Shown one piece after another: positions 33,972 through 58,349 of a stretch of 64,000 nucleotides of DNA. The stretch comes from Fusobacterium perfoetens (lineage in GTDB: Bacteria; Fusobacteriota; Fusobacteriia; Fusobacteriales; Fusobacteriaceae). The notes under the pieces were generated by a model that had not been told where the DNA came from, did not search any database, and worked only from the letters and a program-made list of their open reading frames with translations. Numbering within the stretch: position 1 is the first letter of the stretch; each line of letters opens with the position of its first letter. The stretch lies in assembly GCF_021531595.1 (NCBI RefSeq), contig NZ_JADYUD010000003.1, positions 62,001 through 126,000 of the forward strand, in the 5' to 3' direction. The position numbers and the translations under genes are program-made.

Positions 33972-33988
33972 CTACATTTTTTTAATAA

Positions 33989-34192
33989 CTATTTTACAAC
34001 TACTACATTAGCAGCTTGAGGTCCTTTTTGTCCCTCTTTAACATCAAAAGTTACTTTTTCTCCTTCTTCTAAAGTTTTGAATCCTTCTTTTTGAATTTCA
34101 GAGAAGTGTACGAATAAATCTTTTCCTTCTTCAGAAGTGATGAATCCGAATCCTTTTTCAGCATTAAACCATTTTACTGTACCTTTGTTCAT
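33989..34192 (-). CDS. Cold-shock-family RNA chaperone
   Basis: 67-residue single-domain CSP with both RNA-binding motifs, KGFGFI (RNP1) and LFVHFS (RNP2). It melts RNA secondary structure in the cytoplasm. The promoter at 34331-34359 gives a leader of about 130 bases, a feature of regulated csp mRNAs. Which paralogue (CspA, B, ...) cannot be decided. Confidence 0.95.
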
Positions 34193-34330
34193 TTTGTTAC
34201 CTCCATAAAATACTAATTGTTCACATAAATAAGAAATTTGTTTCAGTTAAACCTTTAAAAGTACTTTATTGAGATAAAATATACTTTAAAATAAACCAAG
34301 CAAAAACTTCCTAAATTTATATTACGACTT

Positions 34331-34842: not shown

Positions 34843-35211
34843 ATGAAAAAAACTGTTTTATTTCTATTCCTGATACTATCTTCTATATCATATTCTGAAT
34901 TTAAAATGAATTTTAAAGACAGAAGAGACGGTTTTAACGGTTTTCCTGTTTATACTTACACAACAGATGATTATGACAGGGACAGAGATCTTCCTGACCT
35001 TATAAAAAAAGCAAAAGAACTTAAAGAAAAAGAAAAAGTTGATGAAATAACTGTTCTTCTTGAAATGGAAGGTGTATACGGATATATTGACAGAGTAGAT
35101 TTACAAGACGATAAATTTTATATTGATGTAGAAAGTGATGATGATTATGTGCAGCTTTTAGTTAATGAAGATAATTTTATCAAATATAAAAAAGCTGGAC
35201 TTGTAAAATAA
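34843..35211 (+). CDS. Small secreted acidic protein of unknown function
   Basis: 122 residues with a signal peptide (cleavage after SYS, about residue 18). The mature protein is rich in Asp, Glu and Lys and ends with strand-like YGYIDRVDLQDDKFYIDV. Exported, function unknown. Ribosome site aggagg; monocistronic with a perfect terminator. Confidence 0.55.
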   Translation: MKKTVLFLFLILSSISYSEFKMNFKDRRDGFNGFPVYTYTTDDYDRDRDLPDLIKKAKELKEKEKVDEITVLLEMEGVYGYIDRVDLQDDKFYIDVESDDDYVQLLVNEDNFIKYKKAGLVK

Positions 35212-35212
35212 C

Positions 35213-35250
35213 AAAAGAATCCCCTGTAAATAAATACAGGGGATTCTTTT
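35213..35250 (+). terminator. Perfect terminator after the small secreted protein gene
   Basis: 16-bp perfect stem (35213-35228 with 35235-35250), six-base loop; A and T tracts on the two sides let it work in both directions. Confidence 0.85.
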
Positions 35251-35275
35251 ACTATATAAATTAAAGATAGGTGGA

Positions 35276-35722
35276 TTAGTCTATTTCTATTCTTCCGAAA
35301 CTTCCTCTATCAACTTTTTCCATTTCTTCAATAAGATTACAACCAAGTTTTAAATTATCATACATTTCTTTGCTGTCAAATTTTTCTGATAAAAAAAGCC
35401 AATTATTATTTATTGGGCTGTTCCATTGATCGTAAATAATATCGGCATATACAACTTCTTCTTCTTTTGTCTCATCTATTATATTTACAGCTCCTAAAAT
35501 ATTATCTTTCAGTTTCATTATTTTAAACAACAGCTCTGCCTGCTCCTCATTCTCTTCATACTTACCAGTATCAAGTGCCCAGATTGAATCTGTTTCTTTG
35601 CTTACAATAATATCCTGAAAATCTCCTTTCATATTACAAAAAGCAGTTGTTCCTGCTAAAAAAATAAAAATAGCAGTTAAAATTTTTCTTTCTTTGTTTA
35701 AAAATTCTCCTACTTCCTTCAT
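35276..35722 (-). CDS. Protein of unknown function with N-terminal hydrophobic segment
   Basis: 148 residues. Residues about 14-30 are hydrophobic (ILTAIFIFLAGTTAFC) and may be a signal peptide or anchor. The rest is acidic. The start is the ATG at 35722, after ggagga; an ATG five codons upstream lies inside that ribosome site. No family recognised. It faces the small secreted protein gene across their shared terminator. Confidence 0.5.
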   Translation of the reverse strand: MKEVGEFLNKERKILTAIFIFLAGTTAFCNMKGDFQDIIVSKETDSIWALDTGKYEENEEQAELLFKIMKLKDNILGAVNIIDETKEEEVVYADIIYDQWNSPINNNWLFLSEKFDSKEMYDNLKLGCNLIEEMEKVDRGSFGRIEID

Positions 35723-35846
35723 CAATATTTCCTCCATAAATTAATATAAAGATTATTGTAGATTTCTACAAAAAACTTAAATCTAAAATTATTTTACGGA
35801 ATTTTACTACATATAATAAAAAAATTAACTAAATTTTAATTTTTTT

Positions 35847-35863
35847 ATTTTACGAAGTAAAAT
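35847..35863. repeat. Perfect 17-bp inverted repeat upstream of a small gene
   Basis: ATTTTAC-gaa-GTAAAAT, about 125 bases upstream of the gene ending at 35276. A partial second copy (attttacggaattttac) lies at 35791-35807. A possible operator pair; no regulator can be named. Confidence 0.35.
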
Positions 35864-35923
35864 TTCATATATGAATAGCATAACATATTTTTAAAGAAAT
35901 GTCTATATCCCTCTTCAATAAAA

Positions 35924-35951
35924 AAAGCTGATACAAAAAGTACCAGCTTTC
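35924..35951 (-). terminator. Terminator of the dicarboxylate symporter gene
   Basis: aaagctg-tac and its complement (one bulged base) close a 5-base loop, and on the minus strand run into a T-tract, 28 bases after the symporter stop. Confidence 0.65.
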
Positions 35952-35978
35952 TTATTATATTTAATTTTAATCTACGAC

Positions 35979-37148
35979 TTATTTACTTACTTCGTTTTTG
36001 AAAAGTCCGTTTAAAATCATTGTTAAAGCTCCGTCACCAGTTACATTACATGCAGTACCGAAACTGTCTTGAAGAGCAAATATTGTAAGCATAAGTCCTA
36101 CACCTGCTTCATCAAATCCAAGTACAGAAATGATAATTCCAAGAGATGCCATTACTGTTCCTCCAGGAACTCCAGGTGCTCCAACAGCAAATATTCCAAG
36201 AAGAATTATAAATAACAACATTGTTCCAAATGATGGTAATTGACCATATAATATTTTAGAAACAGTCATTACAAAGAATACTTCTGTAAGAACTGATCCA
36301 CAAAGGTGAACTGTTGCTCCTAATGGAACTCCAAAGTTTACAATATCTTCTTTAAGTACTGGAGATTTTCTAGCACAAGATAATGCAATTGGAAGAGTTG
36401 CTGCAGATGACATTGTTCCTACAGCTGTTAAGTAAGCTGGTCCATAGTATCTTAAAACATCCATTGGGTTACATTTGTTTACTATACCACCGATACTGTA
36501 AAGAATTGCAAGCCAAATATAGTGTCCTATTAAAACGATTACTATAACTTTTAAGAATACAGGGAATTGTTTTAAAATTACACCTTCATAAGATAAAGTT
36601 GCAAATGTAGTAGCAACGAATAAAGGAAGAATAGGAATTACTATTCTTGTAACTATTGCAAGCATTATATTTCCAAATTCAACAAGTACATTTTCAAAGT
36701 TTTTAGAATTAGTCCATACAACTGCAAGTCCAACAAATATAGCTAGTACAAGAGCTGACATAACTGACATTGTTGGAGGAATTTCAACTTTGAATATTAA
36801 TTCTGGAATAACTTTTTTTGCTTCATCAGCTGCTGAAGTTATATTAAGCATAGGAATTAAAGAATATCCTGCTATCATTGACATAATTGCTGCCCCTACA
36901 GAAGAAAAATATGCCAATCCAATCATAACTCCAAGCATCTTACTTGCATTAGATTTCATTTGTGTTATTGCTGGAGCAATAAACCCTAGAATGATTAGTG
37001 GGATTGTAAAAGATATTACTTGTCCCAATAAGAATTTAACAGTATTTACTAATCCGATTACATTTTCATTACAATATAATCCAACTAGTAGACCAACTAT
37101 TACCCCTAATATTAGTTTTAATATTAGAGAATCTTTTAGTTTTGCCAT
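35979..37148 (-). CDS. Dicarboxylate/amino acid:cation symporter (DAACS)
   Basis: 389-residue inner-membrane protein of the GltP/DctA/SstT fold. Signature segments are the serine-rich reentrant loop SSAATLP and the second loop APGVPGGTVMAS, with the GTACNVTGDGA substrate-site helix. It imports an acidic or small neutral amino acid or C4-dicarboxylate with sodium or protons. The exact substrate is not readable. Monocistronic, with terminator. Confidence 0.85.
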   Translation of the reverse strand: MAKLKDSLILKLILGVIVGLLVGLYCNENVIGLVNTVKFLLGQVISFTIPLIILGFIAPAITQMKSNASKMLGVMIGLAYFSSVGAAIMSMIAGYSLIPMLNITSAADEAKKVIPELIFKVEIPPTMSVMSALVLAIFVGLAVVWTNSKNFENVLVEFGNIMLAIVTRIVIPILPLFVATTFATLSYEGVILKQFPVFLKVIVIVLIGHYIWLAILYSIGGIVNKCNPMDVLRYYGPAYLTAVGTMSSAATLPIALSCARKSPVLKEDIVNFGVPLGATVHLCGSVLTEVFFVMTVSKILYGQLPSFGTMLLFIILLGIFAVGAPGVPGGTVMASLGIIISVLGFDEAGVGLMLTIFALQDSFGTACNVTGDGALTMILNGLFKNEVSK

Positions 37149-37287
37149 AAAAACTACCTCCTAAAAAATTTAAAATAAAATAATCATTAAAATCCACTTA
37201 AACAATGATACTCTTTTTTTGGAAAAAAATCAATAGATTTTTTAAAAAAAGTGTTTATTTTTTATTTTATTTTGTTCTTTTTCAGAT

Positions 37288-40275
37288 CTATTTTGTATTT
37301 TTTTCTACTGCTCTTTTATAAATTTTTTCCATAAGAGATATTTTTCTTAATTCTTTTTCATTGGAAATAAAAGCCTCTTTCATTTCTTCCAAAATATTAA
37401 GAATATTTTCTCCTTGCTTATTTAGCTTATCAGGTTTATCCATTCTTTCTATAAAAAATTTAAAATATTTTACCCGTCTCTCTCTTGCTTTTTTAAAGTC
37501 TACAGTTTCTCCATTGGTATCTGTATGATTTATATCTGCACCATGTTCAAGAAGAAATTCTACTGAAGGCATATCTTCAAAAATACCTGCATAAAAAAGA
37601 GGTGTTTCTTTTCTGCTTGATTCAGAGTTAACATCTGCACCTTTTTTATAAAGAAATTTAAGCCAGCCTATTTTATCTTGTAAAATCATTTGTGTTAAAT
37701 GAATATAGTGCCCTGTAACACTTCCAAGATTTATCTTTTCGTGTATATTTAACCCTAAACTTAGAAGCATTTCAGCTGTCTCTTTTGGCTTATCATTAAT
37801 CATTATATTCATAAGAGGAGTCTTTCCTTGCCTGTCTGCTGTATTTATATCTTTTTTTCCTATATAATTTTCAACAATCTGAATTCTTTCATCTCTTTTA
37901 TCTATATCATTAAATTTTTCTTTTAGAAATTCTCTTCTTGCTCTTATTACTCCTTCTGTATTTGAAGCTTTTTTATAAAAATTTATGGCAAGATCATATT
38001 TTTTTATATAAAAATATGAATCTCCAACAATAGTAAATTCTCTTCTGTTTAAAAACATAGGAATTATTTTATTAATTTCTTTTACACTATAAAGCCCTTT
38101 ATTTATCCCTTCTGATATTTTTCTTTTTATTTCAAAGTATTTATAAGAAAGGGCAAAGCTCTCAAGATATTTAAGTGCTTTTATATAGTTTTCTTTTTCA
38201 ATGATGTTATCTATTATAAGCTTTTCAAAATAAATACGGCTTTTCTTAAAGTTTCCTTTTTCTATTTTTTCAATAGCTGTTTTGTAATCTCCGTTTTCTA
38301 TATCAATTTCTGTTTCTTTTTCTGCAATCCAAGTTGGATAATCTCCCTGCTCAAAAGCATACTGTGCTTCATCAAATTTTTCTAATTTATATAATTTTAT
38401 TCCTTCTGAAATCCATTCTTCCTTTGAAGAAAAAGAATTATTTTTTATTATTTTATCTTTATTTACTTCTTTTTCTTCTTTGATGTTCATAAAAGATTTT
38501 ATATTTTTCAGAAGCTCATTTGCTTCTGAAACTTCTTCCATAATTATTAGATTTTTCCTTGCTCTTGTTATTCCCACATAAAAAAGGTTAAAATATTTTC
38601 TATATCTTTGATCCTGTTTAACATTTCCTGAAAGAATTTTTTTCCATGCCCATAAATTTTTTGAAATTAAATTACAGCATATAACATCTCTGTATTCAAG
38701 ACCTTTTATTTCTTCTACAGTAAAAATTCTATGCTTTATACCTGAAGCTTCTGAGAATTTTTTTCTCTCATCATCATCTGATACAATTATTGCTGCATTA
38801 ACATCTTTTTGAAAATTTTCAGCAAAAGAAAAATCTGTTTTTGAGAAAATTATATTCCCTTCATCCAAAACAGCTCCTTCTTTATAATCGTCCATTCCCA
38901 GATTCCCTATATATTTTTTTCTTAAGTCAGTAAGATAATTTGCAAGCTTTACAATTTCCTTTGAACTTCTATAATTTTTTACAAGAGTTGAAAGAGAATA
39001 TCTCATATTATTTTTATAATAAAGGTTTTTTAATCTGTCAAAACTAAAAGAATTAAAATTTACCATTTGATGAATATCCCCTGCAAAAATAATATTTTCA
39101 GGAGTTTTTACAAGGTTTGATAAAAAATAAATTTCTGTTTCTGTCAAATCCTGAACTTCATCTACAAGTATAAAATCAAATTTTTCCTGAATTTTAGTTC
39201 CTGCTGCAGCTAAATCATTAACATCATATAAATTATTTTCTTTTTTCCATTCTTCATATTTTAAGGCAATCTTATATATTTCTTCTTTCTGACTGCTGCT
39301 TAATACACTGTATTTCTTGCTGAGATTTTTATATTCCTCTAAAGATATAAGAGGATTTAAAATATCTTTTTCCCAGTTATCAGCTCCTCCTTTTCCCATA
39401 ATTCCTTTTATAATTCCTATGATTTCAAAATATATATTTGAATCTTCTACTTTAAGTTTTTTACGGTTCGGATATGAAAAACTTAAGAATTCCATAAATT
39501 TTCTAAAATCTATAATTTTTCTTGTATCTATTCCTAGTTCCTTCCTGTAAAATTCTTTTAAAGTATAAAAAGAAGAGAGAGCTTTTTTATTTTTATCTCT
39601 GAAAAAATAATATTGCTCTTCAAGATTATCTTTAAGATAGCTGTTTCCTGTAAAATATCCTACTTTTTTAAATCCATAGACATCATTATGTTCTTCTATA
39701 TTTAAAATTTTTCTAAGTGTTATAGTGCTTTTTCCACTTCCTGCACTTCCTATTACAAAAAGAGGAGAAGGAGATATTATTGTTTCATATTGTTCGTCAT
39801 TTAAATAATAATAAAAATATTTATTATCCCTGTTAAAAATAAAAAAATTATCATTTTTTATTTCATAAGTTATAACATTGTTATAATTTAAAAAGACACT
39901 CTTATCAATTTCTTCAATTGGTGATGGCTCAAAATCATCTTTAAAAATTTCAAAATCTTTTACTGACTGAATTTCAGCTCTTTTTGAATTTTTTACTCCA
40001 CGGTCGTGAGAAGAATACAAGAGAAATGTGATTTTTTCTTCTTCATCTCCTCTTTTAGAAAAAGAGAAAAAAATTCTATCCCCATTATTTACCCTGAATT
40101 CAAAACGATTCTTTACTCCAGCAAGCTTTTTTATCCAAAATCCTTTTGGAATTTCTTTTATGTTTTTAGAATTTTTTTCAATTTCTTCATAAAAATATTT
40201 TAAGTTCCCAGAAACTATATCTATTTTTTCTTTTGGAATAGATTTAAAGAAATTATCTCTAATTAAAAATTTCAT
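37288..40275 (-). CDS. RelE-like/SF1 (UvrD-type) helicase with TPR and ankyrin repeats
   Basis: 995 residues. Residues 1-92 resemble a RelE/ParE-type fold (FWIKKLAG, FEFRVNNGDRIFF, SSHD). A UvrD-like helicase follows: Walker A GSAGSGKST (176-184), Walker B LVDEVQDLT, motif IV NYRSS and motif VI-like GITRARKN, up to about 620. Residues about 640-800 look like TPR-type helical repeats and 810-945 are ankyrin-like (GADVNSESSRKETPL, HGADINHTDTNGET). The domain order after the helicase recalls eukaryotic TRANK1. Divergent from the replication-initiator homologue. A role in replication, repair or defence is possible; none is shown. Confidence 0.75.
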   Translation of the reverse strand: MKFLIRDNFFKSIPKEKIDIVSGNLKYFYEEIEKNSKNIKEIPKGFWIKKLAGVKNRFEFRVNNGDRIFFSFSKRGDEEEKITFLLYSSHDRGVKNSKRAEIQSVKDFEIFKDDFEPSPIEEIDKSVFLNYNNVITYEIKNDNFFIFNRDNKYFYYYLNDEQYETIISPSPLFVIGSAGSGKSTITLRKILNIEEHNDVYGFKKVGYFTGNSYLKDNLEEQYYFFRDKNKKALSSFYTLKEFYRKELGIDTRKIIDFRKFMEFLSFSYPNRKKLKVEDSNIYFEIIGIIKGIMGKGGADNWEKDILNPLISLEEYKNLSKKYSVLSSSQKEEIYKIALKYEEWKKENNLYDVNDLAAAGTKIQEKFDFILVDEVQDLTETEIYFLSNLVKTPENIIFAGDIHQMVNFNSFSFDRLKNLYYKNNMRYSLSTLVKNYRSSKEIVKLANYLTDLRKKYIGNLGMDDYKEGAVLDEGNIIFSKTDFSFAENFQKDVNAAIIVSDDDERKKFSEASGIKHRIFTVEEIKGLEYRDVICCNLISKNLWAWKKILSGNVKQDQRYRKYFNLFYVGITRARKNLIIMEEVSEANELLKNIKSFMNIKEEKEVNKDKIIKNNSFSSKEEWISEGIKLYKLEKFDEAQYAFEQGDYPTWIAEKETEIDIENGDYKTAIEKIEKGNFKKSRIYFEKLIIDNIIEKENYIKALKYLESFALSYKYFEIKRKISEGINKGLYSVKEINKIIPMFLNRREFTIVGDSYFYIKKYDLAINFYKKASNTEGVIRARREFLKEKFNDIDKRDERIQIVENYIGKKDINTADRQGKTPLMNIMINDKPKETAEMLLSLGLNIHEKINLGSVTGHYIHLTQMILQDKIGWLKFLYKKGADVNSESSRKETPLFYAGIFEDMPSVEFLLEHGADINHTDTNGETVDFKKARERRVKYFKFFIERMDKPDKLNKQGENILNILEEMKEAFISNEKELRKISLMEKIYKRAVEKNTK

Positions 40276-40807
40276 TCTATCTCCTTTTCTATATAAAAGC
40301 TAATAAATTTATAACAAAAATTCGCATTTATATTGTATATTTTATCTACAAGAGAAATGTGAAAAATTATACAATTTTAATACATCCCATAATACATGAG
40401 TAAATAGAATTTTCTACAAGAGAAATACATCCTACAATACATGAGAAAAGAGAAGAGTTATACTATATAAAAGAGAATAAAAAAAATAAAAAATATTTTT
40501 ATAATTATTTTTATTATAAAGTATTAAGATAAAATTTTTCATATTTTTTCTTCCCATAAACAATATAAAACATTAATAAACAAATAAAGAACATACTAAC
40601 AATATCTTTATTGTTTTTTTGTCAGTTTTTTTTATTTATAATCTCTCTTGTATTTTTTGTAAGAATAAGATAAAATCATATTAGAAAATTCATCTCATCT
40701 CTTGTATAAAATGTTATACAAAAATATATATTTTATTATAATATTAAATTAAAAAAATATAAAGCACATTTTATACAAGATACATAAGATTTTTCTCAGG
40801 AGGATTA
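40276..40807. other. Origin-like intergenic region with repeated motifs
   Basis: 532 bp between the divergent helicase and initiator-homologue genes. It holds three to four good copies of the 20-bp motif (40321-40339 minus, 40345-40365 plus, half copy 40413-40426 plus) and three decayed copies (40637-40652 minus, 40690-40711 minus, 40771-40789 plus). Two 29-bp direct repeats (40381-40409 and 40426-40454, four mismatches) and a long A+T stretch at 40470-40620 are also present. This resembles an iteron-type origin or autoregulatory region. TATAAT at 40737-40742 may be the initiator gene's -10. Confidence 0.55.
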
Positions 40808-42844
40808 ATGAATAAAAAGAATGAAATATTCGCTGTTCCTAAAAATGAAGTAATAGATACAGGACCTAGTGAGATAGTTGAAAAATTTCTTGATGTTTCA
40901 GAAGTAGAAAATGAAAAACAACACAGTTTAGTCAGAATAGATATCAATGTTATTGAATATCCCTTATTTACTAAAAATCCAAGAAGAAAAAAAAATCAAA
41001 TTATAAGATATTTCTTTAACAGAGATAAAGAAGCTTATATTCAAGTTAATCCAACTTCAGGAGATTTTATTCCTGGGGAATTTGAAGAAAGAGTTTTTAT
41101 TGCTATTTTAAAAATAATGAGGGATAAAAAATATAACAATGAATTTTATACTAAACCTTCAGAAATTTTATATAACATGGGAATTCCTCAGACTTCATAT
41201 AAAAGTTTTTATAAAAAAATAACTTTAGCACTTCAGAGATTATCCCAAACAAGTTATACTTTTAAAAATTCTCTTTATTCTAATAAAATGAAGGGGATAA
41301 TTGACGATAAAATCAATACAAATATAATGAATATAAGAATTATAACTTTAAATCAAGCTGAAAAAGATGAGATGGAATACTTTCAAGATAAGAGAACAAA
41401 AGAAGTTATAAAAATATCTATTTCAAATTATTTTTATGATAACATTATAAGAAAAGGTTACTTAGTTTATGATTCTCAGCTTCTTTTAAATATGGATAGT
41501 CCTATAACAAGGGCTCTTTATATGCTTGTAAATAAATTAAGATTTAATAAATTTCACTTGAGAGTTTTAGCTCTTAGTCTTATAAAAAAAATACCTTTAA
41601 GTGATGATGCAAAATCTTTGGGAAGAAGTATAAAATCTTTAGAAAAAAGCTGTAAGCAGCTTAAAGAAATGGATCTTATTTCAGATTATAATGTGATTAA
41701 ACAAGGAAAACTTGTTCAAACTGAAATAGAGTTTTTCTTTGAAGAAAAACATAATGCTATAAAGCAAAGTTTCTTTTATGATGATAAAAATCATTTTGAT
41801 AACCTTCTTATTACTTACACAGATAAAGGTGAAGAGGGTGAAATTATAACAGAAAGTGAAGAAGCACTTAAAGAAATTCAGCATGAAAGAGAAAATATAA
41901 CTCCAACAGAAGAAAAAATTAATATAATTTTTGAAAAACTTCCTCCAAGAGCAAAAGAATTAAAAACAATGCCAGGAACAATAAAAGATGCAATCCGTCA
42001 ATATGGTTTTGAATATGTTAAATATACAGCTGAATATATGAGTAAAAATAAAGTAACAAAAATAAGAAGTTATTTTATACAAGCTTTAGAAAAAGGCTGG
42101 GCAGAAAACTTTATGACAATAGAAAAAAGTAAATCTCAGAAAAAGAAAGAGCAGCAGCTTACATTTAATACAATAGAAATGCAGAATACAGAAAAAGATA
42201 AGGCTGATGAAGAAATAAAATCTAGGAAAACAGAACTTTATAATACTTATTATAAGAATTTAAGTGAAGCAGAACAAGAAGAAGTTACAAAAAAAGTTTT
42301 TGATGATTATATAAAAATGTCAGGAACAGCAGTTGCAGGTCCTGCACAAAAAATAGCTTTCCAAAGAGCAAAGGAAAGTTTAATAAAAGAATATTTATAC
42401 AAGACAGATGCAGAAAAAATAAAAGATAAAAAATCAACACCAGAAAAAGAGATGAAAGAAATCCATATGGGAACTCTTATTTTTGGAGAAGATTTTAATA
42501 AAGAAAAGGAAAATGAAATATCTGGAAGCAGTGTTGAAGATATTTATAAAGATATAGAAGATATAACATTTACAGAAGAAAAAGAAGAAGGTACTTCTGA
42601 AAAGAAAATAAAAAAATCTGATATAATATGTGATATTAAAAAAGTTTATAATGAAATTTCATTGTTTCAAATGGAGCTTCTTGATTTCCTTGAACTTTTA
42701 GATACAATAGAACAAGAAACTCAAGATAAAATAGTAAGAATAGTAGGAATTTCAAAACATTTTGAAGCAACAGTAGGTGGATATTATATGAAAATAGAAT
42801 ATGTAAAAGATAAAGAAAGCAGTATAAAAATTATAAAAAAATAA
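40808..42844 (+). CDS. Plasmid-type replication initiator homologue (RPA-like)
   Basis: 678 residues. Residues about 45-310 match replication initiator protein A-type winged-helix proteins in layout: a RIDINVIEYPLF opening, a stretch on determining ploidy of the culture by pairs of helices with TKPSEILYNMG, and LALQRLSQTSYTF. Residues 370-440 have the RSYFIQALEKGW segment common in initiator C-termini. The rest is a charged coiled-coil-like tail. Such proteins bind iterons and start plasmid replication. Here it sits among housekeeping genes, with no partition or mobilisation genes, and is surrounded by a repeated 20-bp motif. Ribosome site caggagg. Confidence 0.6.
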   Translation: MNKKNEIFAVPKNEVIDTGPSEIVEKFLDVSEVENEKQHSLVRIDINVIEYPLFTKNPRRKKNQIIRYFFNRDKEAYIQVNPTSGDFIPGEFEERVFIAILKIMRDKKYNNEFYTKPSEILYNMGIPQTSYKSFYKKITLALQRLSQTSYTFKNSLYSNKMKGIIDDKINTNIMNIRIITLNQAEKDEMEYFQDKRTKEVIKISISNYFYDNIIRKGYLVYDSQLLLNMDSPITRALYMLVNKLRFNKFHLRVLALSLIKKIPLSDDAKSLGRSIKSLEKSCKQLKEMDLISDYNVIKQGKLVQTEIEFFFEEKHNAIKQSFFYDDKNHFDNLLITYTDKGEEGEIITESEEALKEIQHERENITPTEEKINIIFEKLPPRAKELKTMPGTIKDAIRQYGFEYVKYTAEYMSKNKVTKIRSYFIQALEKGWAENFMTIEKSKSQKKKEQQLTFNTIEMQNTEKDKADEEIKSRKTELYNTYYKNLSEAEQEEVTKKVFDDYIKMSGTAVAGPAQKIAFQRAKESLIKEYLYKTDAEKIKDKKSTPEKEMKEIHMGTLIFGEDFNKEKENEISGSSVEDIYKDIEDITFTEEKEEGTSEKKIKKSDIICDIKKVYNEISLFQMELLDFLELLDTIEQETQDKIVRIVGISKHFEATVGGYYMKIEYVKDKESSIKIIKK

Positions 42845-42878
42845 TTCTGCATTACTCTTGTATATTTTATGCAGAATT
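42843..42878 (+). terminator. Hairpin with embedded 20-bp motif after the initiator homologue
   Basis: 10-bp perfect arms aattctgcat (42843-42852) and atgcagaatt (42869-42878), starting just after the stop codon. The 5' arm and loop contain a full minus-orientation copy of the motif. No T-run follows, so termination is uncertain. Confidence 0.5.
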
Positions 42879-42894
42879 AATTTGGGAGGCTGAA

Positions 42895-43821
42895 ATGGAA
42901 GAAATGAAGTATGTTTTTGGACCTGTTCCCTCAAGAAGATTGGGAAACTCTTTGGGAATAAGTCCTATACCGAGAAAAGTGTGCAATTATTCATGTATTT
43001 ACTGTCAGCTTGGAAGAACTGATAAAATGACAGGAGAAAGAAAGGAATTTTTTAAAAAGGAAGATATTTTAAAAGAATTTAAAGAATATCTAAAAGACTC
43101 AAATAAATTTGATGTAATAACAATTGTAGGAGAGGGAGAGCCTACTTTATATTTAAAATTAGGAGAGCTTATAAAAGATGTAAAAAAACTTACTTCTAAA
43201 CCAGTTGCTGTTATAACAAATGGTGCACTTCTCCATGATAAAAATGTGAGAAAAGAACTTTGTGAAGCTGACATTGTTCTTCCTTCAATTGATGGATATG
43301 ATGAAGAAACATCAAAGATAATAGACAGACCTTTAGGAACAATAAAATTTGATGAAGAGCTTCAAGGGCTTATAGAATTTTCTAAAGAATATACAGGGCA
43401 GTTATGGCTTGAAATAATGCTTGTAGAAGGAATTAACAGCGATAAAAATTCTATAGAAGCTTTTAAAGAAATATTAAAAAAAATAAATTATGACAGAGTA
43501 TATATCAATACTCCAGTAAGACCACCTGCAGAAGATTATGTTAAAAGTGTAGGAAAAGAAACAATAGAGTATGCAGTTAAAGAACTGGGAGGAATTTCAA
43601 TAGATATGTTAAGCTCAGGAAATTTCTTCAGCGAAATATCTGATAATTATGAAGCAGTCCTAAGTATTATAAGAAGACACCCTATGAATCAGTTTGAAGT
43701 TGAAAGCTTTATAAATTCAAGAGACATAAAAAATACAAAAGAAATTTTTGAAAGACTTAAAGAAGACAGTAAAGTAAATGTAATAGATTATAAGGGAATA
43801 AAAACTTATAGATTAAAATAG
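42895..43821 (+). CDS. Radical SAM protein of unassigned substrate
   Basis: 308 residues with the radical SAM cluster C-x3-C-x2-C in KVCNYSCIYCQLG (about 29-41), a SAM-binding GEGEPTLY and a C-terminal winged-helix-like segment (about 250-305). The start VFGPVPSRRLGNSLG defines a widespread, uncharacterised subgroup distantly like TYW1. It uses SAM and a [4Fe-4S] cluster in the cytoplasm; the substrate is unknown. Ribosome site gggagg, 10 bases after it the ATG; a motif copy lies about 30 bases upstream. Confidence 0.8.
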   Translation: MEEMKYVFGPVPSRRLGNSLGISPIPRKVCNYSCIYCQLGRTDKMTGERKEFFKKEDILKEFKEYLKDSNKFDVITIVGEGEPTLYLKLGELIKDVKKLTSKPVAVITNGALLHDKNVRKELCEADIVLPSIDGYDEETSKIIDRPLGTIKFDEELQGLIEFSKEYTGQLWLEIMLVEGINSDKNSIEAFKEILKKINYDRVYINTPVRPPAEDYVKSVGKETIEYAVKELGGISIDMLSSGNFFSEISDNYEAVLSIIRRHPMNQFEVESFINSRDIKNTKEIFERLKEDSKVNVIDYKGIKTYRLK

Positions 43822-43842
43822 AATTTAAAAAAAATAAGTTTA

Positions 43843-43962
43843 TAAACAGAAAAAGCCGTCCTTTTCTTTATTAAGAAAGTCGGCTTTTTCTGTTTTTTAA
43901 AGTTTAGGGTAGGAACTCTAAGACCGTCATCACCATAAGTCTTAAAGCAGAAATTAATCTTG
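43843..43962 (-). ncRNA. Candidate stand-alone small RNA
   Basis: A near-perfect minus-strand promoter (43968-43996) would start an RNA near 43962 that ends at the hairpin 43846-43893, about 120 bases with no ORF. The stretch 43901-43945 is visibly less AT-rich than its surroundings and can fold (ttag..ctaa and gacttat/ataagtc-type pairs). I do not recognise an Rfam family. The gap 43899-44143 holds nothing else I can name. Confidence 0.5.
43846..43898. terminator. Bidirectional terminator between the radical SAM gene and a candidate small RNA
   Basis: 13-bp outer stem (43846-43858 with 43881-43893) plus an inner cttttctt/aagaaag stem, T-run on the plus strand and A/T-rich tail on the minus strand. 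Confidence 0.8.
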
Positions 43963-43967
43963 ACTAA

Positions 43968-43996
43968 ATAATATCATAAAATATTTTGCTTGTCAA
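43968..43996 (-). promoter_or_regulatory. Strong sigma70 promoter of the candidate small RNA
   Basis: On the minus strand TTGACA (43996-43991), exactly 17 bp, TATTAT (43973-43968). No protein gene starts within range downstream. Confidence 0.75.
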
Positions 43997-44143
43997 ACAA
44001 TTTTTTTTATTTTTTTAATAAAGAATTAAAAAAAATTATATTTTTATTATAAGTAAAAATATATAAATAATTTATTTAAATATAAAATTTTTTATGATTT
44101 ATATTTTTATCAAAAGCTTTTCCTTCAGATAAAAACATAAATA

Positions 44144-44857
44144 TTATTTTAAATCCATTCTTTCTTTCATTTCAACGATGAGAATATGAGATTTATTTAA
44201 AGCCATTATATCAAGAGACTCTCCTATTGCCTGAAGTCCATCTTTTTCTTTTGTTACATATCTGTTATTTATAAGAGAAGCTCCTTCTGCCTGAATAAGA
44301 TATGCCTGTCTTTTTTCCTTAATTTCAAAGTGAAGATTTTTATTTTTTTCTATCTCTGCAGCAAAAATATTTATATCTTGATTTATTTTAACAGGGGCAT
44401 TTCCATTTTTTTCTGATGCTATATGGAAAAATTTATTTACTCTTTCTTCCCATTTAAATTTAAAATTTTTATAGTCAGCTTTTTTTCCAATAACATTCGG
44501 AAGAATCATAAGTTGTATAAATCTTAAATCTTCATCAGAATTATTATATTCAGAATGAGAAATTCCTGTTCCTGCACTCATATACTGGACTTCTCCTTTT
44601 TCAAGAACAGCTTTTTTTCCAGTACTGTCTTTATGTGAAAGCTTTCCTTTTATTACATAGGATAAGATTTCTATATCAATGTGAGGATGTTCATCAAATC
44701 CTTTTCCTGGGGATATTACATCATCATTTACAACTCTTAAAACTCCAAAATTAATATTTTTTTCATTATAATATTCGGCAAAAGAAAAGTGAAAATTACT
44801 TTTTAGCCAGCCTAAATTTGATTTCCACATATTTTCTGATGGTATTTGTTTAATCAT
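44144..44857 (-). CDS. Pirin-family cupin protein (YhhW-like)
   Basis: 237 residues with two cupin domains. The N-terminal metal site is visible as HPHIDIEILSYVIKGKLSH and GTGISHSEYN. E. coli YhhW has quercetin 2,3-dioxygenase activity in vitro; the physiological role is unclear. Cytoplasmic. Its upstream region carries the inverted pair of the 20-bp motif (44923-44975). Confidence 0.85.
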   Translation of the reverse strand: MIKQIPSENMWKSNLGWLKSNFHFSFAEYYNEKNINFGVLRVVNDDVISPGKGFDEHPHIDIEILSYVIKGKLSHKDSTGKKAVLEKGEVQYMSAGTGISHSEYNNSDEDLRFIQLMILPNVIGKKADYKNFKFKWEERVNKFFHIASEKNGNAPVKINQDINIFAAEIEKNKNLHFEIKEKRQAYLIQAEGASLINNRYVTKEKDGLQAIGESLDIMALNKSHILIVEMKERMDLK

Positions 44858-44922
44858 TTCATCTCCTTTTTGTTGTTATACATTATTTTACATTAAGAAA
44901 GTAAAAAGAATTTTATATAAAA

Positions 44923-44975
44923 ATTCTCATTACTCTTGTATAAATTTTAATATAATATACAAGGGTAATGAGAAT
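44923..44975. repeat. Inverted pair of the 20-bp motif
   Basis: A minus copy (44923-44942) and a plus copy (44956-44975) form 20-bp arms with one mismatch and a 13-base spacer, upstream of the pirin gene and downstream of ybaK. It may also act as a terminator for ybaK. Confidence 0.75.
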
Positions 44976-44982
44976 AAAAAAA

Positions 44983-45459
44983 CTAGAAAACTATAATATC
45001 TCCTGTTTTCATTTTTAAATAATCAATGAGATCTTTAGGATTTATTTCTATCTGAAGTCCTCTCATTCCTCCACTAATAAGTATTGAGTCAAATTTTAAA
45101 GCAGATTCATGGATAAAAGATTCATGTTTTTTTCTTATTCCTACAGGAGAGCATCCTCCTCTTACATACCCTGTATATTTAGTTAATTCCTTTAAAGGGA
45201 GCATTTCAACTCTTTTTGTTCCAGCAAGTTTTGCAAGTTTTTTTAAATCAATGCTGTCTCCTCCAGGAATACATGCAATTATAAGTTCATTTTTTTCATT
45301 TAAGAGAGAAAGAGTTTTAAATATTCTGTCAAGGTCTGTATTTGTAACAAGAGCCACATGAACAGCACTTAAATCGCTTTCATCAACCTCATATTCTTTT
45401 GTGCTATAAGGTATTTTATGCTGATCAAGTTCTCTTACAGCATTTGTTTTTTTTATCAT
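44983..45459 (-). CDS. ybaK: Cys-tRNA(Pro)/aminoacyl-tRNA deacylase (YbaK/EbsC)
   Basis: 158-residue cytoplasmic editing domain protein that clears mischarged tRNA. Family motifs: the start KTNAVRELDQHKIPY, FKTLSL near 47-52 with the catalytic lysine, YVRGGCSPVG and ISGGMRGLQIEI. Full length for YbaK. A motif copy lies at 45491-45509, about 30 bases upstream of its start. Confidence 0.9.
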   Translation of the reverse strand: MIKKTNAVRELDQHKIPYSTKEYEVDESDLSAVHVALVTNTDLDRIFKTLSLLNEKNELIIACIPGGDSIDLKKLAKLAGTKRVEMLPLKELTKYTGYVRGGCSPVGIRKKHESFIHESALKFDSILISGGMRGLQIEINPKDLIDYLKMKTGDIIVF

Positions 45460-45515
45460 AAAAAGTCCTCCATAAAATTTAAAATAAAAATATACAATAG
45501 TAATGCGAAAAAAAT

Positions 45516-46223
45516 TTATTTTATTGAAACATACCCATTTTCATATTCAGGGACAGAAGAATATTTATTTAAAGTAAAGATATGTTCCATATCTTTTTCA
45601 AATCCTAAAGCTAAAAGACGGGAATAATGAGTGCTTCCTTTAAGAATATCTTTTATATTGTCGTGAGATTCTGATATTCTTACAAGAGCAAGAAGTTTAT
45701 CACTTAAAGAAATATCAATATGTTTTTCCAGTTCCTTTATAATAAGTCCTGCACATAAAGCATCATCAAGAGAAAATTCCCCATTTGTTCCAGCACAGAT
45801 AATGGTGCAGTCTTTTCCATATTCAATAATTTTTTCAGCAGCACTTTTAACATTTAAGAAAGAACAAATAATGATTTTTTCAGCAAAAATAGAATTTTCT
45901 ATAGCTTTTGTTCCATTAGTTGTGCTCATATAAATATCTTTTCCAAAAACTTTTTCTTTAGTAAACTCAAGAGGGGAATTTCCTAAATCAAATCCTTGTA
46001 TTTTAAGAGCATTTCTTTCTCCACATTTGATTACATTTTTTAGATTTCTGCATTTCTCTTGTATAGTTTCTATATCTTTAAAAGGAAATATTCTTTTTGC
46101 TCCATTTTCAAGAGCTGTAATCATAACAGATGTAGCACGAAGAACATCAATGACAACACATATTTTTCCTTGTGTTTTAGATTGTGATACTTCATCAGCT
46201 GTAAAAATTATATTTACTTTCAT
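45516..46223 (-). CDS. comB: 2-phosphosulfolactate phosphatase (ComB family)
   Basis: 235 residues of the ComB family, magnesium-dependent phosphatases first known from coenzyme M synthesis. Motifs: VVIDVLRATSV, GERNALKIQGFDLGNSP, STTNGTKAI and AGTNGEFSLDD. Coenzyme M is not expected here, so the real substrate may be another sulfonate phosphate. The ATG at 46223 follows ggagg; longer frames start inside that site. A copy of the 20-bp motif lies inside the gene (46045-46066) and another just upstream (46297). Confidence 0.8.
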   Translation of the reverse strand: MKVNIIFTADEVSQSKTQGKICVVIDVLRATSVMITALENGAKRIFPFKDIETIQEKCRNLKNVIKCGERNALKIQGFDLGNSPLEFTKEKVFGKDIYMSTTNGTKAIENSIFAEKIIICSFLNVKSAAEKIIEYGKDCTIICAGTNGEFSLDDALCAGLIIKELEKHIDISLSDKLLALVRISESHDNIKDILKGSTHYSRLLALGFEKDMEHIFTLNKYSSVPEYENGYVSIK

Positions 46224-46386
46224 TTCTGCCTCCATGAGATAGGATAATATTGTATTAATTGAATTATACCACAAATAGCAAAATATTAAAAAATTTTTCG
46301 CATTTCTCTTGTATAAAATAGGGTTGTGTTTTTACTAAAAAATATGTTATCTTATAGTTACATATTAAAATCAGGAGGAAAAAATA

Positions 46387-46740
46387 ATGATAAAAAGACA
46401 TAATCTTGGAACAAGATACAGTGAAGCTGTAATTTATAATGGAGTAGCTTATCTTTGTGGGCAATGCTGTCATGAAGGTGATGAAGGAAAAAAAGATGTT
46501 AAGGTTCAAACAAAAGAAACACTTGAAAATATTGATAGAGTTCTTTCAGAAATAGGTTCAGATAAATCTAAAGTTCTTATGGCTACAATTTATTTAAAAG
46601 ATATAAGCTATTATGATGAAATGAATGAAGTATGGGATTCATGGATAGCAGAGGGACATTATCCTGCAAGAGCATGTGTTGAAGCTGCACTTGCTGAAAG
46701 AGACCTTCTTGTTGAAATAGTTGTTACAGCAGCAGTCTAG
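46387..46740 (+). CDS. ridA: RidA-family enamine/imine deaminase
   Basis: 117-residue cytoplasmic trimeric protein of the YjgF/YER057c/UK114 family. The substrate-anchoring arginine is in YPARACVEA, and the opening YSEAVIYNGVAYLCGQ and VEIVVTAAV match. It clears reactive enamines such as 2-aminoacrylate. It is a member of the RidA-like subgroups rather than certainly the archetype. Ribosome site aggagg; divergent from comB with a motif copy between. Confidence 0.85.
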   Translation: MIKRHNLGTRYSEAVIYNGVAYLCGQCCHEGDEGKKDVKVQTKETLENIDRVLSEIGSDKSKVLMATIYLKDISYYDEMNEVWDSWIAEGHYPARACVEAALAERDLLVEIVVTAAV

Positions 46741-46838
46741 AAAATTTTCAAGTATTCCATAGTAATGTGAATAAAATATATTTTTATAAAAAATATATTA
46801 AAAAAATATACAAGACTAATGAGAATAAAAATAATAAA

Positions 46839-46866
46839 AGAATCAGGGGCTTATACCCCTGATTCT
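46839..46866. terminator. Terminator between ridA and the short sepF paralogue
   Basis: 11-bp stem agaatcagggg with its complement (46839-46849, 46856-46866), six-base loop, T-run on the minus strand; it overlaps the stop codon of the minus gene. Confidence 0.8.
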
Positions 46867-47170
46867 ATTTATATATTGGAATTATTTCCTCTTCTTCATC
46901 GTATCTTTGACTTACTTTTGATTTATCTACATAATCCATGTAATATTCTTTTGTTTTTGGAATTGTACAGAAAACTTTTTCTCCAGGATTAATTATTTTA
47001 CCTTCCTGAATAAAAATAGCTCCACTTAAAAAATCAAGAATTCTTTGTTGTAAATCTGCTTCAAGACCGAAAAGATTTACATGAACAATCTTATCTTTTT
47101 TTATATATTCTATGCATTTCATACAATCTTCAAATCTTGTGGGTTTAAAAAATACTATATCGTAATCCAT
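46865..47170 (-). CDS. Short SepF-domain paralogue
   Basis: 101 residues, essentially only the C-terminal SepF domain: FEDCMKCIEYIKKDK and QRILDFLSGA align with sepF at 26457, followed by a short acidic tail. The N-terminal membrane-binding helix and linker are missing. It could dimerise with SepF or modulate its polymerisation, or serve another role. Standing alone between ridA and nrnA with its own terminator. Confidence 0.75.
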   Translation of the reverse strand: MDYDIVFFKPTRFEDCMKCIEYIKKDKIVHVNLFGLEADLQQRILDFLSGAIFIQEGKIINPGEKVFCTIPKTKEYYMDYVDKSKVSQRYDEEEEIIPIYK

Positions 47171-47240
47171 AAAATGCCCTCCTTGAATTATTCTTATTAA
47201 ATTTTAATATTATTTTTTGTTTTTTTCAAGAAAATTATTT

Positions 47241-48185
47241 TTATATTTTTTCAGAAATTTTTTCTATTATTTCTTTTTCAGAAAGGTTTGTTGTAAAGCC
47301 AGCAGCTCTTTTATGACCTCCCCCTCCAAAAATAGATGCTATTTCATTAACATCTATCATATTTTTACTTCTCATGCTTCCTTTTATTTTTCCATTTTCA
47401 ATTTCTCTTAAAAATACAGAAACATCACAGTCTTTATACTCAAGAAGGTTTTCAACTATTCCGTCTGTTTCACCTTTTTTAATATTTTCTTTTTGTATAA
47501 AATCATTTTTTAAAGTGAAATAAACTAATTTTTTTTCAGGTATTATTGTCATTTCAGTAAGAGCTTTTCCTAAAGCTTTCATTGCTCCAAGAGATTTATT
47601 TTTATAGACAGCATCAGAAATTTTTGTTCTGTCTATTCCTTTATCAATAAGTTCTCCTCCAACATAAAAAGTTTCTTTTGTTGTACTTTCATATTTAAAG
47701 TTTCCTGTATCTGTGATAACTCCTGTATATATAGCCTCAGCTGTTTTTTTATCTATAGAAATATTAAGCATATCTCTTAAGATGAAAAATATTATTTCAC
47801 TTGTAGAAGAAGCTTCTTTTACAATATTAATATCTCCAAAATTAGGATTGCTTACATGATGGTGATCAATATTTACAAGAAAAGCATTTTTTCTAAGAGA
47901 AGCAGTTTTTCCTATTCTTTCAAATGTAGCAGAATCTACTGTGATAAAAAGATCAGGAGAAAGATTTTCCATCTCTTCAGAAAATTTTTCAATAAGCTCT
48001 GAGCCTTCAAGAAATTTCATATTGTCAGGAATTTCATCTTCCAGTATAAATCTTATATCTTTATCTTTATATTGGTTTTTAAGAGCAAGAAAAAGTGATA
48101 ATCCACTTCCTACAGCATCTCCATCAGGATTTACATGGGAAGTAATAATTATACTTTTGCTCTCTTCTATTTTTTTTAAAAACAT
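47241..48185 (-). CDS. nrnA: DHH-family oligoribonuclease/pAp phosphatase NrnA
   Basis: 314 residues. The N-terminal DHH domain has the metal motifs HVNPDGDAVGS, VDSA and IDHHHVSN; the C-terminal DHHA1 domain has FGGGGHKRAAGF. NrnA degrades short RNAs and dephosphorylates 3'-phosphoadenosine 5'-phosphate in the cytoplasm. I prefer the ATG at 48185 after aaggag; the GTG at 48191 overlaps the ribosome site. Directly follows hprK in the same operon. Confidence 0.9.
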   Translation of the reverse strand: MFLKKIEESKSIIITSHVNPDGDAVGSGLSLFLALKNQYKDKDIRFILEDEIPDNMKFLEGSELIEKFSEEMENLSPDLFITVDSATFERIGKTASLRKNAFLVNIDHHHVSNPNFGDINIVKEASSTSEIIFFILRDMLNISIDKKTAEAIYTGVITDTGNFKYESTTKETFYVGGELIDKGIDRTKISDAVYKNKSLGAMKALGKALTEMTIIPEKKLVYFTLKNDFIQKENIKKGETDGIVENLLEYKDCDVSVFLREIENGKIKGSMRSKNMIDVNEIASIFGGGGHKRAAGFTTNLSEKEIIEKISEKI

Positions 48186-58215: not shown

Positions 58216-58311
58216 ATGACATTTTGTCATAACCCTCATGACAATTTGTCATGCCCCTCATGACAAAATGTCATGACAAAGATTATTCTATAGTAGATTA
58301 CTCTATAGTTG
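58216..58311. repeat. Phased palindrome array, module B
   Basis: Three perfect-arm 15-bp palindromes start at 58216, 58238 and 58260, again 22 bp apart: ATGACATTTTGTCAT, ATGACAATTTGTCAT and ATGACAAAATGTCAT, with CCCTC-type spacers. Two 15-bp direct repeats (58282-58296, 58297-58311; ATTAYTCTATAGTWG) follow. The unit starts equal those of module A plus exactly 136. Confidence 0.85.
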
Positions 58312-58349
58312 ATTAATATATATTACACACACAGGGAAAAACTGGCAGA

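What the first reader, a model, noticed from the sequence alone, without database searches (positions are those of the whole stretch)
40808..42844. Plasmid-style replication initiator encoded among housekeeping genes
An RPA-like initiator with a long charged tail is flanked by ordinary chromosomal genes and by no other plasmid function. Either an integrated replicon has lost all but its initiator, or the chromosome uses this protein for replication control or regulation.
Basis: partly seen in the sequence, partly recalled or inferred. Interest (0 to 1): 0.62.

Follow-up and report, generated by a model that had tools for sequence, protein, structure and literature searches.

The report
Second replication origin without DnaA
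The gene is a plasmid-type replication starter sitting in its own origin of replication, and chasing it showed that its whole bacterial family seems to have lost the near-universal starter protein DnaA and to start its chromosomes with a relative of this protein.

Summary
The ORF is real (window 40808-42844, + strand, 678 aa). It is one of the RPA-like initiators of Fusobacteriaceae, and it is not alone. (1) Eleven copies of an iteron, predicted from another genus's array, lie within 7 kb of it, against 3 in 250 kb elsewhere. (2) Third-codon strand asymmetry on its 181-kb contig flips here, origin-like. (3) Cetobacterium sp. 2A has the same helicase-initiator order. ParAB is missing, and core genes begin 4 kb downstream. 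So this is an origin module of a secondary replicon (chromid), still separate or fused into the chromosome; the data do not decide which.

The larger result lies outside the window. Fusobacteriaceae lack DnaA: domain IV is in 0 of 61 genomes, against 36 of 37 other Fusobacteriota. At the usual dnaA place (rpmH - X - yaaA - recF - dciA - gyrB) sits a distant relative of the window protein, strong in 56 of 61 genomes, preceded by spaced iterons TATTATTGNNNNTATACA (383 sites against 15 for the reversed control). The GC-skew minimum lies just upstream in Cetobacterium somerae and Fusobacterium vincentii. The window's own genome has this chromosomal initiator on another contig. I found no report of this in the papers searched. 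Nothing was tested at the bench.

The parts
40808..42844 (+). RPA-like replication initiator gene (678 aa), 'type II' secondary-replicon initiator
   Evidence: ORF; relatives; homology to chromosomal RPA-like initiators; purifying selection
40276..40807 (.). A+T-rich intergenic region upstream of the initiator, holding scattered iterons; probable origin core and autoregulated promoter (function inferred)
40011..40033 (-). iteron (inside the helicase gene)
   Evidence: 16.4 bits with the matrix trained only on Cetobacterium sp. 2A iterons
40320..40342 (+). iteron
   Evidence: 16.6 bits
40342..40364 (-). iteron
   Evidence: 15.9 bits;
40407..40433 (-). iteron (weaker; found by local motif only)
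   Evidence: one of the five training sites
40634..40660 (+). iteron (weaker; found by local motif only)
   Evidence: training site
40688..40714 (+). iteron (weaker; found by local motif only)
   Evidence: training site
40766..40792 (-). iteron just before the ribosome-binding site (local motif only)
   Evidence: training site
42845..42867 (+). iteron in a hairpin directly after the initiator gene
   Evidence: 19.3 bits; sequence
44923..44945 (+). iteron, first of an inverted pair
   Evidence: 23.0 bits
44953..44975 (-). iteron, second of an inverted pair; best match in the window
   Evidence: 25.0 bits
45488..45510 (-). iteron
   Evidence: 20.3 bits
46046..46068 (+). iteron (inside the comB-like gene)
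   Evidence: 14.2 bits
46296..46318 (+). iteron
   Evidence: 19.4 bits
46750..46772 (-). iteron, weak
   Evidence: 12.2 bits
46804..46826 (-). iteron
   Evidence: 18.7 bits
37288..40275 (-). UvrD-like helicase with TPR and ankyrin repeats; neighbour of the same initiator type, same relative orientation, in Cetobacterium sp. 2A (there one further ORF lies between)
   Evidence: Pfam; synteny (47% identity)
34843..42844 (.). interval in which third-codon G/C strand asymmetry flips from minus-leading to plus-leading (within 3 log-likelihood units)
35979..46274 (.). segment in which the five ORFs with a C. somerae placement (symporter, helicase, initiator, YbaK, ComB) all hit the C. somerae chromid; others in the segment (radical SAM, pirin) have no hit

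Best explanation
Window 40808-42844 encodes an iteron-binding initiator of the RPA group that starts replication at an origin at or beside its own gene. The initiator and its sites come from a secondary replicon (chromid) shared with Cetobacterium-like relatives. Proposed working: the protein binds 22-23-bp iterons (TTCNCATTNCYCTTGTATA) upstream of and around its gene, opens the A+T-rich upstream region, has the replicative helicase loaded, and represses its own promoter through the overlapping sites; spare iterons out to 46.8 kb may titrate it. Shown by sequence: gene, iterons, their match to the initiator type, origin-like strand asymmetry. Inferred: binding, opening, helicase loading, autoregulation. 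This is one case of a family-wide system: Fusobacteriaceae have no DnaA and appear to start their main chromosome with a distant RPA-like initiator ('Rep_chr') at the old dnaA place, from its own iterons. The window's strain carries both, on different contigs. Whether the window's origin is still on a separate replicon (I favour this slightly) or fused into the chromosome is open.
For: Window gene: a matrix trained only on the iterons of Cetobacterium sp. 2A finds 11 sites within 12 kb of the gene, 2 in the other 169 kb of the contig and 1 in 81 kb of two other contigs. A matrix trained on the five upstream sites finds 8 more sites of 16 bits or more, all at 42161-47787, none in 250 kb elsewhere. 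Iteron type follows initiator type: the same iterons stand before the two closest relatives; of five type-I loci scanned, four have none and one (L022) has a single 12.2-bit hit at the threshold. Strand flip: 0 of 500 gene-order shuffles reach it with all third positions; interval 34.8-42.8 kb. In C. somerae the chromid's skew minimum lies 1.2 kb upstream of the related initiator, and 11 C. somerae plasmid records carry a relative. Family: DnaA domain III has no good match in 61 Fusobacteriaceae genomes (best E 3.4e-12, in a 288-aa frame) but E below 1e-44 in 36 of 37 others; domain IV 0 of 61 against 36 of 37. Rep_chr strong (E 1e-170 or better) in 56 of 61. rpmH - iterons - Rep_chr - yaaA - recF - dciA - gyrB with the skew minimum between rpmH and Rep_chr in F. 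vincentii; minimum 733 bp upstream in C. somerae. Iterons 383 against 15 control sites in 61 genomes.
Against: No experiment. No parAB by the gene or on the 180,874-base contig. The iterons are scattered, in both orientations, and less perfect than the tandem array of Cetobacterium sp. 2A, which could be decay. Strand asymmetry fades to about zero beyond 40 kb left and 47 kb right, and an inversion boundary could mimic the flip. From 47.2 kb on, core genes begin that have no ortholog in the chromid or in the 58% of the C. somerae chromosome I held, so the module abuts chromosomal-looking genes. The other six genomes of the genus lack the full gene, and the loci I read from them show no iterons. 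The contig ends do not overlap, so it is not shown to be circular. The structure model was poor (mean pLDDT 50), so the winged-helix fold is not shown.
Confidence: 0.7

Rival explanations
1. Relic: the secondary replicon has fused into the chromosome; the initiator is still made but its origin is silent or rarely used. The scattered iterons are a decayed array, and the strand flip is left over from the past or made by an inversion boundary.
For: No parAB; degenerate scattered iterons; core genes begin 4 kb downstream of the gene; helicase and symporter have changed relative orientation in relatives, so rearrangements happened here; asymmetry limited to about 90 kb.
Against: Intact ORF, core under strong purifying selection; 11 recognisable iterons; the flip interval includes the gene.
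Confidence: 0.2
2. The window protein is the main chromosomal initiator of this strain.
For: DnaA is absent; origin-like flip at the gene.
Against: The genome also has Rep_chr on C7 (E 5.9e-273) with spaced family iterons upstream (five by eye) and minus-leading asymmetry over the 59 kb held to its left; six congeners live without the window gene.
Confidence: 0.04
3. Not an initiator now but a DNA-binding regulator of nearby genes that uses the scattered sites.
For: Sites extend to 46.8 kb, some inside other genes and in intergenic pairs.
Against: Close relatives sit on plasmids and chromids, at the chromid's skew minimum in C. somerae; origin-like flip.
Confidence: 0.05
4. On the family claim: DnaA is present but too divergent to see, or initiation is DnaA-independent in another way and Rep_chr is only a neighbour.
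For: Authors of the F. [quoted passage not shown]
Against: Two separate DnaA domains give nothing good in 61 genomes while sister families score strongly; at that very place stands Rep_chr with iterons and the skew minimum.
Confidence: 0.1

Closest known systems
RPA family, PF10134 'Replication initiator protein A' (plasmid initiators)
   Same: Sequence relationship through relatives; initiator gene on plasmids and large replicons.
   Different: The window protein itself does not reach the Pfam model, is far longer (678 aa against a 228-position model) with a charged tail and a conserved C-terminal domain; a distant relative seems to run the main chromosome of a whole family.
Iteron plasmid initiators (RepE, pi, TrfA) - recalled
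   Same: Direct repeats near the gene, initiator-specific sites, probable autoregulation.
   Different: Used here on very large replicons and, as Rep_chr, apparently on the main chromosome; chromosomal iterons are about 105 bp apart rather than contiguous.
RctB / chromosome II of Vibrio (secondary chromosome with an iteron-type initiator) - recalled
   Same: Plasmid-like initiator on a large second replicon carrying core genes.
   Different: Vibrio keeps DnaA for chromosome I; here DnaA is absent and the main chromosome has an RPA-like protein too.
dnaA-lacking free-living cyanobacteria (PMC7198777, passages seen)
   Same: Free-living bacteria without dnaA.
   Different: They replicate from multiple origins with irregular GC skew; the Fusobacteriaceae chromosome looked at (C. 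somerae, 58% held) has a regular skew with its minimum at a dedicated initiator gene.
Secondary chromosome of Ilyobacter (PMC3035301) and chromid of Psychrilyobacter (PMC10580919), passages seen
   Same: Large second replicons in Fusobacteriaceae; the Ilyobacter 961-kb replicon starts with an RPA-like gene.
   Different: Those papers, in the passages seen, do not name the initiator; the Ilyobacter gene is annotated 'hypothetical protein'.

Membership tests
PF10134 RPA | Pfam gathering score reached by the protein itself | tested here: not met
   0 families for P0001 at E up to 1; Ilyobacter Rep_chr reaches 29 bits against a cut-off of 27; 1 of 16 close relatives hits it at E 1.2e-5
PF10134 RPA | Homology to proteins that do reach the model | tested here: met
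   BLASTP E 9e-8 over 313 columns to Ilyobacter Rep_chr; hhalign probability 90%, E 1.6e-6
Iteron-type replication initiator | Initiator-specific direct repeats at the gene | tested here: met
   in the window they are scattered, not tandem
Iteron-type replication initiator | Two winged-helix domains | tested here: inconclusive
   model of P0001 had pLDDT 50, pTM 0.29; no fold search was made with it
Iteron-type replication initiator | Site-specific binding and origin opening | not testable with these tools
   needs the purified protein
Replication origin | Strand-composition flip at the site | tested here: met
   0 of 500 shuffles, interval 34.8-42.8 kb; an inversion boundary could also give it
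Chromid / autonomous secondary replicon | Separate circular molecule | tested here: inconclusive
   contig of 180,874 bases, ends do not overlap
Chromid / autonomous secondary replicon | Partition genes parAB next to the initiator | tested here: not met
   none on C3; C. somerae chromid has ParA beside its initiator
Chromid / autonomous secondary replicon | Gene content shared with known chromids | tested here: inconclusive
   C3 ORFs of at least 120 aa: 23 chromid, 12 chromosome, 112 unplaced of 147; control contigs C7 and C15: 10 chromid, 31 chromosome, 31 unplaced of 72 (Fisher p 4e-4); but 42% of the C. somerae chromosome was not held and the main control contig is origin-proximal
DnaA | Domain III (PF00308) or IV (PF08299) in the family's genomes | tested here: not met
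   Rep_chr gives no DnaA match in Pfam

The most novel reading that the evidence does not exclude
A whole bacterial family (Fusobacteriaceae, which includes Fusobacterium nucleatum) has discarded DnaA and starts its main chromosome with a plasmid-type RPA-like initiator that took over the dnaA place and works from its own spaced iterons; other large replicons of the family use relatives of the same protein. In the stronger form (about 0.2), the window's strain runs two such origins with different initiators on one chromosome.
Probability: 0.8. Interest if true: 0.93.

Novelty: new variant of a known kind. Interest (0 to 1): 0.86.

Why it matters
DnaA is treated as the universal bacterial initiator. 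A 2020 paper says that, outside cyanobacteria, no free-living species without dnaA had been reported (PMC7198777, passage seen). A family of free-living and host-associated bacteria, with human pathobionts among them, that instead uses an iteron-binding plasmid-type protein would show that the chromosomal initiator can be exchanged for a plasmid's. It would raise the question how once-per-cycle control works without DnaA and its regulators, and would offer a lineage-specific essential target. The window adds a strain with two initiator types and a way to ask how second origins arise and are tamed.

Tried and rejected
Pfam, NCBIfam, PHROG and PDB look-ups of the window protein gave nothing useful (a weak PHROG of unknown function, E 1.8e-6). 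No phage record matches, and two scans of viral contigs found no relative, so a prophage origin was dropped. Rfam finds no RNA in the window. The structure model was too poor to search with; no fold search was run. Contig circularity was tested and not found. The idea that the window protein is a strict ortholog of the C. somerae chromid initiator was dropped after the tree: it groups with a second type found in two Cetobacterium-like genomes (99/98). In that tree long branches meet, so the joins among distant plasmid rows are unsure; 5 of the 22 plasmid-type loci I gave were dropped by my ORF filter. The paper on Fusobacterium 'replication initiator protein A' as a nucleomodulin concerns a different RepA-like protein of about 276 residues (PMC12611965, passages). 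The enrichment of chromid genes on the contig is weaker than its p-value because the control is biased; I do not lean on it. Claims of not being in print rest on searches of an open-access library without preprints, of which I read only passages of eight papers.

Full report
THE OBSERVATION. The ORF is there as described: 40808-42844, +, 678 aa, preceded by AGGAGG. Its flanks are ordinary genes. The protein has no Pfam, NCBIfam or PDB match of its own. The 'RPA-like' label holds only through relatives: the Ilyobacter relative reaches PF10134 RPA above its gathering score (29 bits, cut-off 27), two other chromosomal relatives score just below it (25.5 and 25.7 bits) and one has no match; 1 of 16 closer relatives hits RPA. 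P0001 and the Ilyobacter protein are homologous (BLASTP E 9e-8; hhalign of the two families 90%). Over the first 345 residues it keeps 274 identical to a Cetobacterium sp. 2A copy, although third bases at shared fourfold codons agree only at chance level (17 of 41, 0.39 expected): long purifying selection.

WHO HAS IT. In the window's own genome (G000, 2.06 Mb, 36 contigs; window = C3:62001-126000) the gene is single. Of 7 genomes of its genus, only G000 has it; G006 has just the last 79 residues in another ORF. Of 98 Fusobacteriota genomes, 20 match at E 0.001 or better. Among plasmid records it hits 11 Cetobacterium, 1 Sebaldella, 3 Rubrobacter and 1 Candidatus Manganitrophus record, the closest on the 665- and 705-kb replicons of C. 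somerae. There the relative lies near ParA. No phage record matches. A tree puts the window protein with copies in two Cetobacterium-like genomes (G009 contig C10, G008 contig C38; 99/98), apart from the C. somerae chromid type. G009 is Cetobacterium sp. 2A by record title and contig length.

THE ORIGIN MODULE. Upstream of the Cetobacterium sp. 2A copy stand five tandem repeats of the type TTCGCATTACCCTTGTATATCTA plus flanking single copies. A matrix trained on these seven sites alone, never on the window, finds 11 sites of 12 bits or more within 12 kb of the window gene, against 2 in the other 169 kb of its contig and 1 in 81 kb of two other contigs. It finds 4 in the short G008 contig. In five loci of the other initiator type it finds none in four and one 12.2-bit hit in the fifth; in nine loci of congeners that lack the gene, none. 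A second matrix, trained on the five upstream sites of the window, finds 8 further sites of 16 bits or more, all at 42161-47787, none in 250 kb elsewhere. Those five were picked by me from CTTGTA matches upstream of the gene, so only the untrained hits count. In the window the sites are scattered and in both orientations, unlike the tandem array. The neighbour upstream, a UvrD/ankyrin helicase on the opposite strand, also stands next to the initiator in Cetobacterium sp. 2A (47% identity, one further ORF between). Three more genes of that 20-kb stretch lie elsewhere on contig C3 (153.5, 178.0 and 180.2 kb; 72, 78 and 59%).

STRAND ASYMMETRY. On contig C3 (180,874 bases, 159 ORFs of at least about 100 aa) third-codon G against C, taken separately for each coding strand, flips in an origin-like way. 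The best split is at 98.6 kb for all third positions and 105.4 kb for fourfold sites; gains are 33.7 and 10.1 log units over the whole contig, reached in 0 and 2 of 500 gene-order shuffles; for 75-150 kb they are 52.1 and 20.1, both 0 of 500. The interval within 3 log units is window 34.8-42.8 kb. The raw cumulative skew does not show it (its minimum in C3 60-160 kb is at 130 kb), because genes on the lagging strand dominate to the right. The asymmetry fades beyond about 40 kb left and 47 kb right. An inversion boundary could imitate the flip; congeners do show helicase and symporter in another relative orientation.

CHROMID OR FUSED? For a separate replicon: iterons, flip, shared gene content. 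Of C3 ORFs of at least 120 aa, 23 are placed on the C. somerae chromid, 12 on its chromosome, and 112 of 147 are unplaced; in contigs C7 and C15 it is 10, 31 and 31 of 72 (Fisher p 4e-4). This test is biased: 42% of the C. somerae chromosome was not held, and C7 is the origin-proximal contig. Against: no ParA on C3, no end overlap, and from window 47.2 kb on a run of core genes with no ortholog in the held parts, so probably on the unheld half of the chromosome. I leave this open, with a slight lean to a separate or recently separate replicon.

THE FAMILY HAS NO DnaA. Looking for the normal initiator gave the main result. PF00308 (DnaA domain III) has E below 1e-44 in 36 of the 37 Fusobacteriota genomes outside the family of the window's genome; the miss is 82% complete. 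In the 61 genomes of the family the best is E 3.4e-12, and the hits lie in frames of about 150-300 aa, which look like helicase loaders or transposon proteins (my reading). PF08299 (domain IV) is in 36 of the same 37 and in 0 of 61. The family is Fusobacteriaceae: it holds Ilyobacter polytropus (chromosome length 2,046,464) and Cetobacterium.

WHAT STANDS IN ITS PLACE. I read the DNA upstream of recF (placed) in ten genomes. In four of them (G041 Ilyobacter, G037, G032, G009) a protein of 580-612 aa, here 'Rep_chr', lies upstream of yaaA - recF; in G009 two other genes lie between. A fifth, G022, was seen only in part. The other six (G000, G001, G005, G012, G016 C. somerae, G054) have other genes there. 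A profile of four Rep_chr finds it in 59 of 61 family genomes: 56 at E 1e-170 or better, 3 weak or fragmentary (G051, G056, G060), 2 misses (G039, G045). The window's genome has it at C7:109083-110942, so it carries both initiators. In F. vincentii SB055 (a 2.1-Mb record filed as a plasmid) the order is trmE, jag, yidC, yidD, rnpA, rpmH, then 96671-98584 Rep_chr, yaaA, recF, dciA, gyrB (gene names from my reading of the translations): the classical oriC neighbourhood with dnaA replaced. In the 200 kb examined the GC-skew minimum is at 96,071, between rpmH and Rep_chr; the strand-separated third-codon skew there is less clean than in C. somerae. In C. somerae the chromosome minimum, over the 58% held, is 733 bp upstream of position 1 (Rep_chr starts at 16), and the chromid minimum is 1.2 kb upstream of its own initiator, with the maximum at 227 kb near the opposite side.

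CHROMOSOMAL ITERONS. Between rpmH and Rep_chr stand copies of TATTATTGNNNNTATACA, in Cetobacterium mostly about 105 bp apart, ten helical turns. A slightly looser form is found in 28 of 30 Rep_chr loci held; the two without it start at the contig's end and hold almost no upstream DNA. The exact pattern occurs in 59 of 61 family genomes, 383 sites against 15 for the reversed control. In C. somerae 6 of 7 genome-wide sites lie in the 530 bp before Rep_chr, and the seventh about 13 kb away; the listing of sites was cut, so places were not seen for all genomes. In the tree all 19 chromosomal sequences fall on one side of a 100/100 branch and all 17 plasmid-type ones on the other.

KNOWN OR NEW. 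The 2007 F. [quoted passage not shown] by place this should be Rep_chr (inference). A 2020 paper states that outside cyanobacteria no free-living species without dnaA was reported (PMC7198777, passages). The Ilyobacter and Psychrilyobacter papers describe a second chromosome and a chromid, in the passages seen without naming an initiator. Ten library searches found no paper on this replacement; the library is open access only.

MECHANISM. By analogy with iteron plasmids (recalled): initiator monomers bind iterons, the A+T-rich region melts, the replicative helicase is loaded (in this family perhaps with DciA, whose gene sits beside recF), and initiation is limited by autorepression and handcuffing. 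Only gene, sites, co-specificity and asymmetry are shown here.

Noticed in passing
window about 33980-34215: A stretch of about 235 bp with a 95%-identical copy in the same genome (C12) and 89-93% copies in other genomes of the genus (two side by side in G002 and G005), with no Rfam match: a conserved multicopy element of unknown kind.
   Followed up: no
NZ_CP084075.1 (L261, L263-L266): F. vincentii SB055 'plasmid pSB055A' of 2.1 Mb is by content a chromosome (rpmH, recF and gyrB beside its initiator) and looks misfiled.
   Followed up: partly
G015 contig C6, about 11.9-18 kb: An inverted second copy of the chromosomal origin with four iterons on each side and a Rep_chr full of stop codons: a decayed duplicate origin or an assembly artefact.
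   Followed up: no
Cetobacterium chromosomes (G010, G012, G016, G017, G018): One lone chromosomal iteron lies about 13 kb upstream of the origin in several species: a conserved distal site, possibly for titration.
   Followed up: no
L070 (G006 contig C48) 9989-10750: A 253-aa ORF on a mobile-looking contig carries only the initiator's C-terminal domain (52% over 79 residues) behind an unrelated start: the domain is re-used separately.
   Followed up: partly
G008 and G009 (G009 = Cetobacterium sp. 2A): Ten and seven matches to the window protein per genome, mostly on different contigs: genomes with many replicons, or many copies.
   Followed up: partly
window 58216-58322: Two adjacent short tandem repeats (22 bp x 2.7 and 15 bp x 2.9).
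   Followed up: no
G000 contig C10 about 66.3-68.2 kb (L251): A ParA/ParB pair beside a resolvase, only 27% identical to the chromid ParA; may be a mobile element or the missing partition system of a second replicon.
   Followed up: no
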